From the NCBI GenBank assembly GCA_023434855.1, contig JAEYSJ010000035.1:1-7379 (forward strand): a DNA stretch of 7,379 nt. Direction: 5' to 3'. The stretch is from Bacillota bacterium (GTDB lineage: Bacteria; Bacillota_C; Negativicutes; JAEYSJ01). Numbering within the stretch: position 1 is the first letter of the stretch; every line of letters begins with the position of its first letter. Below are positions 446 to 7,379 of the stretch, piece after piece. The position numbers and the translations under genes are program-made. Under the pieces are notes generated by a model that had not been told where the DNA came from, searched no databases, and worked only from the letters and a program-made list of their open reading frames with translations.

Positions 446-490
446 GGGGCTAGCCTAAAATACGTTTAGATTAGCCCCTCTTAATTATAT
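446..490. terminator. Bidirectional hairpin terminator after the AraC-type gene
   Basis: GGGGCTA..CTAAA (446-459) pairs with TTTAG..TAGCCCC (465-478) around a 5-nt loop. This gives 12 base pairs interrupted by one two-base internal mismatch. The plus side is followed by a moderately T-rich stretch. The arrangement can end transcription from the AraC-type gene, and also any minus-strand transcript coming from the repeat region on the right. The T-run is imperfect, so strength is uncertain. Confidence 0.6.
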
Positions 491-902
491 TCAATTTGAT
501 TTTTTCTTTTGGAAAGAGCCCGCAATGATCTACGCTACAGCCAATACCGATCATTACATACCTATACGCAATCTTTCGACTACCCACAAGCATTACACAA
601 CCGATAGTGACCTTTGCTCGACTACTGAGAATACCTGCCGAACCTACTGCAATCTCCCGACTGCAATAGACCCATCTAAGCGTCCCCCAGGAAGACTCTC
701 CAGCACTCCCAGTAATCTTAGCTCGACTGCCATACATCCCTTTTGACCACACGACAACAGTTGGGCTGCCGTACAGCCTTACAAGACACATGACAATCTT
801 CCCGCTGACTAATGCCGAACCCATCGATCCGACACTAATCTTTGGCCGACCGATACCGAACACCATGTAAGATGGAGATATCCGGCACCAATCTTGGCTC
901 AA
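471..902 (-). pseudogene. Possible remnant of a repetitive-protein gene (heptad Gly/Ser repeats), coding status doubtful
   Basis: The minus strand is open for 143 codons across the whole tandem repeat. It reads as rough heptads: GSRAKIT, CSREIAV, GSAGILS, SRAKVTI, GCVMLVG, SRKIAYR. A Gly-Ser every seventh residue and alternating hydrophobics resemble short-turn beta-solenoid or adhesin-head repeats, but no family is recognised. The start would be a TTG at 902 with no convincing SD at the right distance. An ATG a few bases upstream, with AAAGGG before it, is in another frame and stops after 23 codons. The last repeat interval (about 53 bp) is not a multiple of three, so the outermost unit is out of frame with the rest. 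I therefore read this as a decayed fragment, or as noncoding repeat DNA that happens to be open. Confidence 0.25.
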
Positions 903-1939: not shown

Positions 1940-2179
1940 ATGATAATTGCCAATCTTAATGATATGGCCAGAAACCTTAACCCAAGGTATAACTATCCAA
2001 ACAAAGCTTTAGATGAAGTAATTCGCACCGGATCCGAAAGCAAACCTCTGACGTTAATGTGGAAAGAAGATGACATTAAGCCGATTTTCATTTTCGTTGT
2101 TCACTTATTTATTGAATCCAATTTATATATGGTGTTGGACCCGCCGGGATTTACGAAACAGATCCCCTATCTCGTTTAG
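1940..2179 (+). pseudogene. Short ORF (79 codons) ending at the repeat A boundary, probably a truncated gene
   Basis: An ATG at 1940 follows AAGGA (1925-1929) at 10 nt and directly abuts an upstream TGA. The protein has a polar N-terminal half (NDMARNLNPRYNYPNKALDE) and a hydrophobic stretch around residues 48-60 (IFIFVVHLFIESN), ending DPPGFTKQIPYLV. No family is recognised. The stop TAG (2177-2179) is completed by the first two bases of repeat A, so the reading frame appears to have been cut when the repeat arrived and only the 5' part remains. The stretch before it (about 1858-1939) is also open in another frame and encodes a Lys/Gln-rich tail with no start codon, perhaps another remnant. 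It could still be a short real protein. Confidence 0.4.
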
Positions 2180-2420
2180 TTTACATAATGAGATGTTAGA
2201 GGACTGTCGTCTTCCATTCCACTTAGGATACAATCGAATAAAATAGCAAGGTTCTATCTACTTAGGATTGGCGAGTTTAACAAGTGTTATCCGCCGTCCT
2301 TTTTTTCGTTCCCCGGGTCTTAACTTAACTTGATTCTAGAGTAACATACCGCCGGAAAAAACGACTACCAAGCCTCATAAATACTGAATTCCTGTCTTAA
2401 AGTGCTGATGAACAATACCG
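2178..2420 (+). repeat. Dispersed repeat A, copy 1
   Basis: This matches 7141-7379 in the same orientation. The first 42 bases are identical by eye. A central stretch of about 45 bases (about 2220-2262) has diverged. The rest is about 90% alike, including the terminator hairpin and the GAGTAACATACCGCCG block near 2340. The second copy runs off the window, so the right end may be longer. It begins with a 29-base core (2180-2208) that recurs inverted inside repeat B. The 5' part can form GAGGAC-TGTC-GTCTTC (2199-2214). No ORF is seen inside. Confidence 0.9.
2264..2306 (+). terminator. Intrinsic terminator inside repeat A, copy 1
   Basis: AGGA..GGCG (2264-2273) pairs with CGCC.TCCT (2292-2300), with a further small AACA/TGTT stem in the loop, followed by seven T residues (2300-2306). 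Substitutions between the two copies fall mostly outside the paired bases; one change is in the loop. This suggests the hairpin is a working part of the repeat. It would stop transcription coming from the left before it reaches the rep gene. Confidence 0.75.
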
Positions 2421-2455: not shown

Positions 2456-2483
2456 TTGAAAAACAAAAAAATTTTGGTTTAAT
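2456..2483 (+). promoter_or_regulatory. Candidate promoter of the rep gene
   Basis: TTGAAA (2456-2461), a 16-nt spacer and TTTAAT (2478-2483) are each one base off the sigma-A consensus. Transcription would start near 2490, only about 10 nt before the terminator hairpin that precedes rep. The AT-rich setting makes chance matches possible. Confidence 0.5.
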
Positions 2484-2499
2484 TCTAACATTCAAATAA

Positions 2500-2533
2500 A
2501 AGAAGGTACTTCCAAATGAGGTTCCTTCTTTTT
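2500..2533 (+). terminator. Intrinsic terminator/attenuator in the rep leader
   Basis: AAGAAGG (2500-2506) pairs with CCTTCTT (2524-2530). After a T-T mismatch, ACTTC (2508-2512) pairs with GAGGT (2518-2522, one G-U) around the loop CAAAT. T residues continue to 2533. It sits between the rep promoter and the rep SD, so most transcripts should end here unless the hairpin is prevented. This is the layout of transcriptional attenuation known for several Gram-positive plasmid rep genes. Confidence 0.8.
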
Positions 2534-2550
2534 GTATGTTAGGAGGAACC
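2520..2550 (+). promoter_or_regulatory. SD-sequestering hairpin, alternative to the rep leader terminator
   Basis: GGTTCCTTCT (2520-2529), which is mostly the 3' arm of the terminator, can pair over ten bases with AGGAGGAACC (2541-2550), which contains the rep SD. Only one pair is a G-U wobble, and the loop is 11 nt. The terminator and this hairpin are mutually exclusive. The complementarity is read directly; the regulatory role is inferred. Confidence 0.55.
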
Positions 2551-2552
2551 AA

Positions 2553-3257
2553 ATGTCCAGACTTGTATTCGTCGATAGAAAAGTAATTGTATCAGGTGGT
2601 ATGGTCGAAGAATGGATATACGAAATGGCATCAGTACGTGGCTTGTGCCCTAAAGCCAGAAGTGGTCATTCATCTGAAAGTCAGAAAAGAAAGTGGGGAA
2701 CCAAAAACAAAAAGGAATCATTCAATCATTTTCTTCGGTTAGTATGTACCAATTTTCTTAAAACGAAAAGTCGTTTCATAACCTTAACATTCAAGGAAAA
2801 TGTAACCGATGTCGCTCAAGCCAATAAGGAATTTGAAAACTTCATAAAGCGGTTACGAAGAAAATATGGTAGTGATTTTAAATATCTATCGTCAATCGAA
2901 TTCCAAGAACGTGGCGCGGTGCATTACCATATCATTAGCGATATTTGTTATGTAGAAGAGGAGGAAATGGAGAAAATCTGGGGACATGGTTTTGTTAAAA
3001 TCAAATTCATAGAAACTGCAAAGCATTGCGCCGTCTACGCAGGCAAATATATGAGAAAGGGTATTGCTGACGACCGCCTAAAAGGGAAAAAGGGCTATTG
3101 GACTTCGAAAAACCTTGTAAAGCCCGTTGAATTCCTAAACCAAAAAGCGGATGACCTTTTAAAAAGTCATCCGAAAATAGAGCTATATACTGAAAAGAGC
3201 TATCAGTCCGAACATAACGGGCAAGTTCGCTATCGGAAATTTTTCATTAATTCATGA
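2553..3257 (+). CDS. Rolling-circle replication initiator (HUH endonuclease, Rep/G2P-like), 234 aa
   Basis: This enzyme class nicks one strand at a double-strand origin, stays attached through a tyrosine, and starts rolling-circle replication. The three family motifs are present in order: motif 1 RFITLTF (about residues 74-80), the metal-binding HUH motif as GAVHYHII (His124 and His126), and the catalytic YAGKYMRK (Tyr162, Lys165, Tyr166, Lys169), followed by GKKGYWTSKNL. The layout resembles replication proteins of filamentous phages and small plasmids. No helicase domain is present, so host helicase would be needed. I chose ATG 2553 because GGAGG (2542-2546) lies 6 nt before it; an in-frame TTG at 2532 falls in the terminator T-run. 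The gene is led by a promoter and attenuator, and its 3' end overlaps the convergent gene by 28 bp. Confidence 0.88.
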   Translation: MSRLVFVDRKVIVSGGMVEEWIYEMASVRGLCPKARSGHSSESQKRKWGTKNKKESFNHFLRLVCTNFLKTKSRFITLTFKENVTDVAQANKEFENFIKRLRRKYGSDFKYLSSIEFQERGAVHYHIISDICYVEEEEMEKIWGHGFVKIKFIETAKHCAVYAGKYMRKGIADDRLKGKKGYWTSKNLVKPVEFLNQKADDLLKSHPKIELYTEKSYQSEHNGQVRYRKFFINS

Positions 3258-3954: not shown

Positions 3955-4172
3955 TAAATAGAATACCTTTATTCAAATAAATGAAGCTGGTTGTTAAAAA
4001 AAATGAAACAGGTTGATTTAAAAAATTAATTAGTAAAATCTCAATCAAGTATGTAACAGTTGGGGAGCCGACACGAAAAAGGCAAGATGCCGAAGGCTTC
4101 AAAACAACTTAATACAGGAGGGTAGCAACCTCGCTAAAAAGATGCTTTGGGTTAAGAAAGAGGGTGGGGGCA

Positions 4173-5072
4173 ATGAGGGGAAATACAAGATGGCAAGTCA
4201 ATCAAGCCTTAGACGAACTCGACAACTTTGGAATGTCGAAGCACGAAATCAAACTTTCTATGCAGGAAAGTGGTATCAAAGATTGGCACGAAATTGGACA
4301 GTCAACAGGCATTTTTCATTCCCGTACAAAAGACAGTTATCGGGACGCAATCCTGCAATTTTGTAACTGGGCAAAAGCCGAATATGGCATAAAAGATATA
4401 ACTAAACTGGATGCCAATCACGCATCCCAGTGGCTGGAGAAAAAAATATTCGCCGATGGCATAGCCCTAAAAACGTTTAATGCTTACGCCAGTGCATTAG
4501 AGAAATTCTCGATAGGACTAGAGCAGCTAATAGGCAAAGAATATAACTGGTCAGCAAATATTAATCAAATGAGAGAAATCGCACACAACGTTTGCGGTAA
4601 CGAACATATAGACAGGGCGTTTAAAAATCCAATGGCGGTCATTGAAGCCACTTCGCCCGAATTCCGCATTTATGCGGAAATTCAATATTTCTGCGGGTGC
4701 AGGATAAACGAAATTCACACGCTAAGAATAGATGATGAAGGAAGATACTGGGTCACGGGAAAAGGCAACTACACAAGGGAGGTGTTTCCTCCTGACAATC
4801 TAAAAAGTCAAATCATAACCCATATTGCTGAAAGCGGTATGGGTTTAACTACGAAAGCGGAACAAGACGAATACCGTAATGCAATTAAATCCGCTTGCCT
4901 TCAAACAGGCGAACACTACAGCGGTTCGCATTCCTTCCGTCATAATTTTTCGCAGGAGAAATTTAGTTCCTGCCTTGCCGAAGGCAAAGGCTATCATAGA
5001 AGTTTGCAGGAAACAAGCGCAGCACTCGGGCATCACAGGGAAGATGTGGTAAAAATATATTATCTTAAGTAA
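4173..5072 (+). CDS. Tyrosine recombinase / integrase, 299 aa
   Basis: This protein cuts and rejoins DNA at specific sites through a 3'-phosphotyrosine intermediate and would integrate and excise the element. The N-terminal part (about 1-130) is a helical SAM-like core-binding domain (YRDAILQFCNWAKAEYG). The catalytic domain shows Arg177 (CGCRINEI), Lys197 (VTGKGNY), His253 and Arg256 (SHSFRH), His287 (ALGHHRED) and the nucleophile near the very end, probably Tyr297 (KIYYLK). The full set of active-site residues is therefore present. ATG 4173 is preferred because GAGGG (4160-4164) lies 8 nt upstream; a GTG at 4164 has no SD at the right distance. The end of the gene runs into a terminator hairpin shared with the convergent membrane gene. 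The target site is unknown. Confidence 0.88.
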   Translation: MRGNTRWQVNQALDELDNFGMSKHEIKLSMQESGIKDWHEIGQSTGIFHSRTKDSYRDAILQFCNWAKAEYGIKDITKLDANHASQWLEKKIFADGIALKTFNAYASALEKFSIGLEQLIGKEYNWSANINQMREIAHNVCGNEHIDRAFKNPMAVIEATSPEFRIYAEIQYFCGCRINEIHTLRIDDEGRYWVTGKGNYTREVFPPDNLKSQIITHIAESGMGLTTKAEQDEYRNAIKSACLQTGEHYSGSHSFRHNFSQEKFSSCLAEGKGYHRSLQETSAALGHHREDVVKIYYLK

Positions 5073-5894: not shown

Positions 5895-6054
5895 CGGCAA
5901 CGCAGTTCGTTGCTTCCTTGAAAACCCTTGACAGTCGTCTAACATCTATTATTTAAAAGCGTTAAGAAAATGGCGTAAAAATTACCGATTTAAGCTTTGG
6001 CTAATGTATTTCATTTCATGAATGCAATTTTTATGACGTTTTTTGGGAACGACT
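5895..6054 (+). repeat. Dispersed repeat B, copy 1
   Basis: This 160-bp stretch matches 6952-7111 without gaps, with about 11 mismatches counted by eye (about 93%). It opens with the perfect small hairpin GCAACG-CAGTT-CGTTGC (5898-5914). It then carries the 28-base core (5930-5957) that is the inverse of the start of repeat A, and ends with arms around AAAATGGCG near 5970 and TATGACGTTTT near 6032-6042 that pair imperfectly. A consensus TTGACA (5928-5933) is inside, 16 nt before TATTTA, so a promoter facing the next gene is possible but its -10 is poor. The spacer 5733-5894 before it has only a small CCCTA/TAGGG hairpin (5795-5809). Confidence 0.9.
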
Positions 6055-6137
6055 GGAATTTAATATTAACAATGTGGGGTAGTCAGTTAGCTCCAGTTTG
6101 GGCATACTATTTTGGGGCATACTATTTAGGTCAATAA
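6018..6137 (+). CDS. Possible small aromatic-rich peptide, 39 or 34 codons, weak
   Basis: An ORF starts at ATG 6018, or in frame at ATG 6033, and ends at TAA 6135. From the second start it reads with TMWGSQLAPVWAYYFGAYYLGQ-like composition, very rich in Trp, Tyr, Gly and Phe. This is unlike random translation and similar in style to small membrane or spore-associated peptides. Its first 12 codons lie in repeat B. The equivalent ORF in B copy 2 stops after 12 codons. A 15-bp tandem duplication makes the AYYFG/AYYLG repeat. No SD precedes either ATG, so expression is doubtful. Confidence 0.2.
   Translation: MNAIFMTFFGNDWNLILTMWGSQLAPVWAYYFGAYYLGQ
6099..6128. repeat. 15-bp tandem duplication
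   Basis: GGGCATACTATTT occurs at 6100-6112 and again at 6115-6127, a near-perfect tandem pair with a 15-bp period, about 40 bp before the second membrane gene. It could be a regulator site or simply a recent slippage duplication. Confidence 0.6.
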
Positions 6138-6951: not shown

Positions 6952-7111
6952 CGGCAACGCAGTTCGTTGCTACCATAGAAACCCTTGACAGTCGTCTAAC
7001 ATCTATTATGTAAAAGCGTAAGGAAAATGGCGTAAAAATTGCCGATTTGAGCTTTGGCTAATGTATTTCATTTCATGAATGCAATTTTTATGACGTTTTC
7101 TGGGAGCGACT
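6952..7111 (+). repeat. Dispersed repeat B, copy 2
   Basis: This is the direct repeat of 5895-6054 (see there). The core is at 6987-7014 and a TTGACA at 6985-6990. The copy is followed within 30 bp by repeat A copy 2, so the core here and the one at 7143-7171 form a close inverted pair 128 bp apart. The 245 bp before it (6707-6951) show no gene or clear signal. Confidence 0.9.
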
Positions 7112-7171
7112 AGTATTAAGAAGGCCCCCCCCTTCTTTACAGTTTACATAATGAGATGTTAGAGGACTGTC
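6987..7171. repeat. Inverted pair of the 28-29-bp core at the B/A junction
   Basis: The core at 6987-7014 is the reverse complement of 7143-7171 apart from one mismatch and one extra base. Between them, a second pair nests: TAAAAATTGC near 7034-7043 and GCAATTTTTA near 7081-7090. The whole 185-bp block could fold into one long branched hairpin, like a small MITE or a folded recombination site. Confidence 0.7.
7118..7137. terminator. Hairpin with an all-C loop between repeats B and A
   Basis: AAGAAGG (7118-7124) pairs with CCTTCTT (7131-7137) around six C residues, making a run of eight C in an AT-rich region. TTTAC follows, so weak termination is possible. The stem arms are the same seven bases as in the rep leader terminator. 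Confidence 0.4.
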
Positions 7172-7379
7172 GTCTTCCATTCAAGATGGATACAGCCTAT
7201 CAAAAAGAATAGAAGTCATCGATTTAGGATTGGCGAGTTTAACGAGTGTTATCCGCCGTCCTTTTTTTCGTCCCCAGGTCTTTAACTTAACTCGACTCTA
7301 GAGTAACATACCGCCGAAAAAACGCCTACAAAACCTCATAAATATTGAATTCTTGTCTTAAAGTACTGATGAAAAATAC
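7141..7379 (+). repeat. Dispersed repeat A, copy 2 (continues past the window)
   Basis: Same orientation as 2178-2420 and similar to it up to the last base of the window, so its right end is not seen. The core is at 7143-7171. The central part (about 7183-7223) differs from copy 1, while the terminator and the block after it are kept. No ORF is seen. Confidence 0.9.
7226..7268 (+). terminator. Intrinsic terminator inside repeat A, copy 2
   Basis: The stem is the same as in copy 1: AGGA..GGCG with CGCC.TCCT, then seven T residues (7262-7268). The only change inside the hairpin is in the loop (AACGAGTGTT instead of AACAAGTGTT). Confidence 0.75.

What the first reader, a model, noticed from the sequence alone, without database searches (positions are those of the whole stretch)
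2456..2556. Rep leader with a terminator whose 3' arm can also hide the rep ribosome site
Promoter-like boxes (2456-2483) lead almost directly into an intrinsic terminator (2500-2533). The 3' arm of that terminator (2520-2529) is complementary over ten bases, one a G-U, to the SD region 2541-2550. If the terminator forms, transcription stops. If its 5' arm is captured, for example by an antisense RNA or protein, the freed 3' arm can block the SD. This would be a compact two-level lock on rolling-circle initiation. Attenuation is known for plasmid rep genes; the shared-arm design in an integrated minimal element is the unusual part.
Basis: partly seen in the sequence, partly recalled or inferred. 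Interest (0 to 1): 0.7.

Follow-up and report, generated by a model that had tools for sequence, protein, structure and literature searches.

The report
Nested hairpin hiding a rep start
Just before the replication gene of a small mobile element lies one long RNA hairpin that looks able both to stop transcription and to hide the ribosome site, probably as a guard against unwanted switching-on from outside; the parts are known from plasmids and transposons, the arrangement here is a variant.

Summary
The stretch 2473-2553 is one imperfect 81-nt palindrome (-32.3 kcal/mol for 2474-2553, z -6.8): the terminator is its tip, the SD its 3' foot. Its 5' foot overlaps the putative -10 box. Transcripts entering from upstream keep that foot and are predicted to bury the SD; transcripts from the local promoter-like boxes would start inside the palindrome, lose the foot and leave the SD about half open. 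I read it as a two-level guard against read-through expression, as known for Tn10 and IS200, before an HUH Rep (PF23343) with a pC194-like nick site at 2328. Covariation could not be tested: no DNA of close relatives was reachable. Leaders of distant relatives mostly lack the design (2 of 47 measured are similar).

The parts
2456..2483 (+). promoter-like boxes TTGAAA - 16 - TTTAAT; the -10 box lies in the 5' foot of the palindrome; start expected near 2489-2491
   Evidence: rank 3 of + sites in the window, but equalled in 14 of 200 shuffles of the region
2473..2553 (+). nested hairpin (imperfect palindrome, 81 nt)
   Evidence: -32.3 kcal/mol for 2474-2553, z -6.8, 0 of 1000 shuffles as stable
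2473..2491 (+). 5' foot of the hairpin, pairs with 2536-2553 (SD and first base of the start codon)
   Evidence: duplex of 2470-2497 with 2534-2553 -17.6 kcal/mol, 5 of 5000 shuffles as strong
2498..2533 (+). tip of the hairpin = intrinsic-terminator-like stem-loop with U-run 2529-2533
   Evidence: -14.7 kcal/mol in 2491-2533; 3 of 1000 shuffles of 2498-2533 as stable
2520..2529 (+). terminator 3' arm, alternative anti-SD
2541..2546 (+). Shine-Dalgarno AGGAGG of rep
   Evidence: sequence; -11.1 kcal/mol with the recalled 16S tail used
2553..3257 (+). rep, HUH rolling-circle initiator, PF23343 REP_ORF2-G2P
   Evidence: E 5.7e-21; phrog_3419, 1e-29
2318..2363 (+). double-strand-origin-like site, ACTTGATTCTAG at 2328-2339
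   Evidence: best profile hit in the window (16.7 bits; highest of 30 shuffles 14.0)
2264..2306 (+). second, upstream terminator-like hairpin with T7 run
   Evidence: -13.5 kcal/mol, z -2.9, 2 of 200 shuffles as stable

Best explanation
The leader is an insulator of rep. RNA polymerase entering from upstream (host DNA after integration, or round a circle) first meets terminator-like hairpins (2264-2306, then 2498-2533). Any transcript that passes carries the 5' foot 2473-2491, which folds on 2536-2553 and buries the SD and the edge of the start codon, so it is poorly translated. Transcripts from the local promoter start near 2490, inside the foot, and cannot make the outer lock. Most should stop at the weak terminator; the few that pass keep the terminator hairpin folded and the SD about half open, giving little Rep. 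Shown: sequence, possible pairings, predicted energies, rarity. Inferred: promoter use, termination, translation block, integration, and insulation as the selected role.
For: SD unpaired 0.19 for transcripts starting at 2420-2474 (outer pair 2487:2540 P 1.00), against about 0.5 for starts at 2489-2494 with 3' end 2575. Whole hairpin 0 of 1000 shuffles and 0 of 201 background leaders as stable. Outer foot 5 of 5000 shuffles. A second terminator-like hairpin upstream. P0002 (86% identical) is given from an upstream start as MLGGTKMS, which needs ATG-YTN-GGN-GGN-ACN-AAR-ATG, so the 3' foot ATGTTAGGAGGAACCAAA is at least compatible there. Six named plasmid and phage relatives show no such lock (0 of 6, two of them with leaders cut short by the record end). 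5' terminators before mobile-element genes are a described class said to prevent expression when inserted in a transcribed region (PMC2965389, passages).
Against: The promoter is not better than chance allows (14 of 200 shuffles). With the 3' end at 2620 the AUG is buried in other pairs whatever the start (unpaired 0.04-0.13) and SD openness for local starts is 0.32-0.53, while for starts at 2478-2486 with that end it is 0.32-0.66 although the outer stem forms: the contrast is moderate and depends on the 3' end. No covariation: no DNA of a close relative was reachable. Of 47 measured homologue leaders only 2 (L013, L061) have z at or below -3 with the SD region unpaired 0.2 or less, near the background rate (5 of 201). 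That the element is integrated is itself inferred; the contig ends inside the right repeat.
Confidence: 0.5

Rival explanations
1. Antisense-RNA control of the pT181, pIP501 or pSK41 kind: a countertranscript or protein captures the 5' arm and shifts the leader between terminator and anti-SD hairpin.
For: Terminator and anti-SD hairpins are nearly equal in energy (-14.7 and -14.9); the growing transcript from 2490 passes through the anti-SD fold as its minimum when it ends at 2556; anti-SD energy matched in 1 of 201 genes. An antisense promoter-like site at 2895-2866 scores above the rep boxes. Antisense attenuation is known for pT181 and pIP501, antisense-induced hiding of the ribosome site for pSK41 (PMC5703833 passages).
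Against: No pre-emptor found; that antisense site is more than 300 nt inside rep and nothing strong lies nearer; both proposed states are OFF; the outer stem excludes the anti-SD hairpin in transcripts that hold 2473-2491.
Confidence: 0.2
2. A plain terminator in front of rep, with the anti-SD run a by-product of a pyrimidine-rich arm facing a purine-rich SD; no translational role.
For: Runs of 10 or more pairs to an SD are common (14 of 118); anti-SD strength 66 of 5000 shuffles; an SD as buried as here occurs in 25 of 201 genes.
Against: The outer foot does not belong to the terminator and is rare (5 of 5000), and the full hairpin exceeds all 201 background leaders.
Confidence: 0.17
3. The palindrome acts as DNA: an operator for a repressor at the rep promoter, or a single-strand origin of rolling-circle replication.
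For: It overlaps the promoter-like boxes and also folds as single-stranded DNA (-18.1 for 2460-2560).
Against: No CS-6 (TAGCGW) inside it; it lies after the nick-like site, while an sso is said to lie usually just before the dso (PMC5037232 passages). The pairing is imperfect and uses G-U, which favours RNA: the opposite strand as RNA gives -25.4 (2440-2560) against -35.1 for the + strand (2440-2575).
Confidence: 0.13

Closest known systems
Tn10/IS10 protection from external promoters (Davis, Simons, Kleckner 1985; seen only as a title in a reference list; mechanism recalled) and IS200 (Beuzon 1999; title in the same list, paper not held)
   Same: block of transcription and of translation in read-through mRNA by a hairpin over the ribosome site; local promoter starting inside the repeat (all recalled)
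   Different: here the gene is an HUH rolling-circle initiator, and terminator and SD lock are one nested hairpin
pT181 repC attenuator, stem-loop IV (PMC5703833, passages)
   Same: terminator-like stem-loop just before rep, predicted to hold the ribosome site
   Different: pT181 has a pre-emptor and an 87-nt antisense RNA; no pre-emptor and no evident antisense gene found here; Rep is of another family
pSK41 rep leader (same source)
   Same: ribosome site hidden in a stem-loop
   Different: there the stem-loop is induced by an antisense RNA; RepA_N plasmid
Mobile attenuators, class 1 (PMC2965389, passages)
   Same: 5' terminator in front of a mobile-element gene, said to stop expression from outside
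   Different: no SD lock in the passages read; those are transposase and other IS genes

Membership tests
pT181-type countertranscript attenuator | terminator stem-loop between promoter and rep start | tested here: met
   by folding; the promoter itself is uncertain
pT181-type countertranscript attenuator | pre-emptor that pairs with the 5' arm of the terminator | tested here: not met
   only about 8-10 nt precede the stem if the start is near 2490; none in folds of longer transcripts
pT181-type countertranscript attenuator | antisense RNA over the leader | tested here: inconclusive
   promoter scan only: 2895-2866 (9.65, deep in rep) and weak 2559-2531 (5.75)
pT181-type countertranscript attenuator | Rep_trans initiator | tested here: not met
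   PF23343 instead
Tn10/IS200-type fold-back protection | 5' segment present only in read-through mRNA pairs with the ribosome site | tested here: met
   by folding; depends on the assumed start
Tn10/IS200-type fold-back protection | local promoter starts inside the 5' arm | tested here: inconclusive
   boxes present but 14 of 200 shuffles as good
Tn10/IS200-type fold-back protection | read-through mRNA is poorly translated | not testable with these tools
   needs reporter fusions
pC194-type rolling-circle replicon | CTTGATA-like nick site near rep | tested here: met
   CTTGATT within 2328-2339; literature motif CTTGATA, PMC10378824 passages
pC194-type rolling-circle replicon | Rep_1 (PF01446) initiator | tested here: not met
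   no PF01446 match up to E 0.01, PF23343 instead

The most novel reading that the evidence does not exclude
An integrated rolling-circle element guards its initiator as transposons guard their transposase: one nested hairpin terminates read-through transcription and hides the ribosome site, and the gene's own promoter escapes the lock because it fires inside the hairpin's 5' foot. Rep would thus tell its own transcript from the host's, keeping the chromosomal origin copy silent.
Probability: 0.35. Interest if true: 0.5.

Novelty: new variant of a known kind. Interest (0 to 1): 0.35.

Why it matters
Firing a rolling-circle origin inside a chromosome should be dangerous for the host. If the reading holds, it shows how an integrated rolling-circle element keeps chance transcription from switching on its initiator, and it gives a simple test by mutation and compensation. 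As an RNA device it combines two known tricks in one stem.

Tried and rejected
Covariation in homologous leaders, the decisive test: not possible. P0002-P0006 (48-87% identical) came as proteins only. DNA searches gave nothing closer than about 50%: genome contigs (21 loci, best segment 49%), viral contigs (3 loci, up to 37%; 0), plasmids by protein (82 records, all under 60%; the 30 listed at most 43%), phages by protein (26 records, at most 37%), DNA against plasmids and phages (no match; one search gave only 5 weak pieces of 13-17% of the query at E 0.4), and whole genomes (18 of 398, 13 of 398, the same 2 of 39, 2 of 98; samples overlap; best 46%). only re-searched genomes of known loci (5 of 5, 6 of 6). 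The host could not be named (no genome held; searches did not tell).

Rejected: Rfam families (0 matches at the gathering score); single-strand origin by CS-6; the idea that the nick site lies in the palindrome: the nick-like motif is at 2328, 225 nt before the ATG, whereas in 22 of the 23 distinct homologue loci in which I judged such a site and an in-frame start to be both present the nearest start lies within 80 nt (exception L033, 155 nt; L048, a second rep behind L036's site, left out; unrelated ACTTGA words in L001, L005, L006 and L043 left out by eye). Three named plasmids have 45, 86 and 155 nt. A wider claim that rep genes of this family generally hide their SD failed: 2 of 47 measured leaders against 5 of 201 background genes. 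Of the loci up to L064, L046 and L060 had no match at E 0.001; of the remaining 62, 9 exact duplicates and 6 without a usable start or enough leader were dropped; L091 came later and was not measured. In one search the script gave rep the upstream TTG start, so its rep row is not used.

Full report
Check of the observation. 2520-2529 pairs with 2541-2550 over ten bases, one a G-U. The terminator hairpin and the anti-SD hairpin have nearly equal predicted energies, -14.7 and -14.9 kcal/mol. The promoter-like boxes rank third among + strand sites of the window and ninth on both strands (recalled weights), yet 14 of 200 shuffles of 2420-2556 hold a site as good, so they remain a suggestion; the stricter scan did not list them, because the second hexamer lacks A at position 2.

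What was missed. Folding 2485-2560 (z -4.1) shows the terminator extended by CUAACAU/AUGUUAG, and folding from 2420 extends it further, to 2473-2553. The palindrome has -32.3 kcal/mol (2474-2553), z -6.8; 0 of 1000 shuffles are as stable. The 5' foot against the 3' foot alone is matched in 5 of 5000 shuffles, and 16 of 4902 28-mers of the window (both strands, itself included) pair with the 3' foot as strongly. The anti-SD duplex is matched in 66 of 5000 shuffles and by 30 of 4895 38-mers. In a background of 201 SD-led genes from 20 stretches of three genomes (30-40% G+C), none has a leader as stable by energy or z (one has z -7.40 against -7.43), 1 has an anti-SD as strong, and 25 have an SD as buried. 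So SD burial alone is ordinary; the size and nesting of the hairpin are not.

Which structure forms when. With the RNA start moved along the leader (3' end 2575 or 2620), starts at 2420-2474 give the outer stem with probability 1.00, SD unpaired 0.19 and the anti-SD hairpin 0.00. Starts at 2478-2482 still hide the SD (0.06-0.08) with 3' end 2575, less so (0.32-0.37) with 3' end 2620; at 2486 the outer pair still has 0.97 but the SD is unpaired 0.39-0.66. Starts at 2489-2494 lose most of the outer stem: SD unpaired about 0.5 (3' end 2575) or 0.32-0.53 (2620); terminator 0.94-0.98 or 0.40-0.70; anti-SD 0.02-0.06 or 0.30-0.60. Only when the 5' arm of the terminator is absent (start 2505 or later) does the anti-SD hairpin take over fully. 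Folding of growing transcripts shows the terminator forming first; in those from 2300 or 2400 the outer lock zips up from 2540 on, in that from 2490 the anti-SD fold is the minimum at end 2556 and the terminator again at 2575. These are equilibrium predictions and assume the start site.

Context. Rep is an HUH initiator of PF23343. In many homologues a motif like ACTTGAT(T/A)ATAG stands before rep: 38 of 62 loci have a CTTGA(T/C) site within 400 nt, 28 of them distinct, 24 have none (the sites were picked by that core, so the profile is biased towards it). Its profile finds 2318 (16.7 bits) and 7280 (13.8 bits) as the two best places in the window; maxima of 30 shuffles average 8.2, highest 14.0, so the second place would not stand alone. 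CTTGATA is the described nick site of pC194-like origins (PMC10378824, passages). The two places lie in a direct repeat, 2178-2418 and 7141-7379, 4.96 kb apart; in the right copy the core reads ACTCGACTCTAG. A second terminator-like hairpin, 2264-2306, precedes the left origin. So the order is terminator, nick-like site, promoter-like boxes, nested hairpin, rep.

Relatives. No close relative could be read as DNA. P0002 (86%) is given from an upstream ATG as MLGGTKMS, which fits the 3' foot and SD of the window with one extra base; this says nothing about the 5' foot. Of 62 homologue loci, 9 were exact duplicates, 6 could not be measured, 47 were; 2 have a strong SD-hiding leader: L061 (z -6.2, an uninterrupted hairpin whose 3' arm holds GTTAGGAGTG, with TTTT four bases before the ATG) and L013 (z -5.9, a hairpin around the nick-like site). 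Start choice there was mechanical. Six named plasmid and phage relatives show none, two of them with leaders cut short by the record's end.

Mechanism. The likeliest reading is a guard against read-through expression: terminators plus an SD lock that only read-through RNA can form. This matches what is stated for 5' terminators of insertion sequences (PMC2965389, passages), where papers on Tn10 and IS200 are cited; those two papers were not read. pT181 already has a terminator stem predicted to hold the ribosome site (PMC5703833, passages), so that idea is not new. Ten full-text searches (two were aimed at other points) showed no report of fold-back protection of a rolling-circle rep among the titles and abstracts listed; the library lacks most subscription journals.

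Verdict. Observation confirmed and enlarged; interpretation partly supported; a new variant of a known kind, of moderate interest.

Noticed in passing
2178-2206 (-), 5932-5959 (+), 6989-7016 (+), 7141-7169 (-): Four related sites, roughly CAGTC.TCTAACATCT.ATTATGTAAA (the one at 5932 reads ATTATTTAAA), resemble Xer dif sites (dif recalled, not from a call); the integrase 4164-5072 is nearest XerC in NCBIfam, far below cut-off. The element may move by Xer-like recombination.
   Followed up: partly
2178-2418 and 7141-7379: About 240-bp direct repeats, each with a nick-like origin site (right copy altered in the core), stand 4.96 kb apart; a Rep starting at one and stopping at the other could release a circle. 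The contig ends inside the right copy.
   Followed up: partly
5895-6060 and 6952-7117: 166-nt repeats (92%) on both sides of a gene with a sub-threshold YqhR match; they fold as single-stranded DNA (-20.0 and -25.1) and give the tail a cassette-like look.
   Followed up: no
L061:1200-1320: A distant rep homologue (25% identical) has an uninterrupted terminator-like hairpin holding the SD, with TTTT four bases before the ATG.
   Followed up: partly
471-902 (-): Open frame of 143 aa with a periodic glycine/serine-rich pattern; no family search was made for it.
   Followed up: no
4173-5072: The integrase found no relative but itself among 436 candidates of the large protein search, although plasmid tblastn lists 17 records at 21-33% identity.
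   Followed up: no
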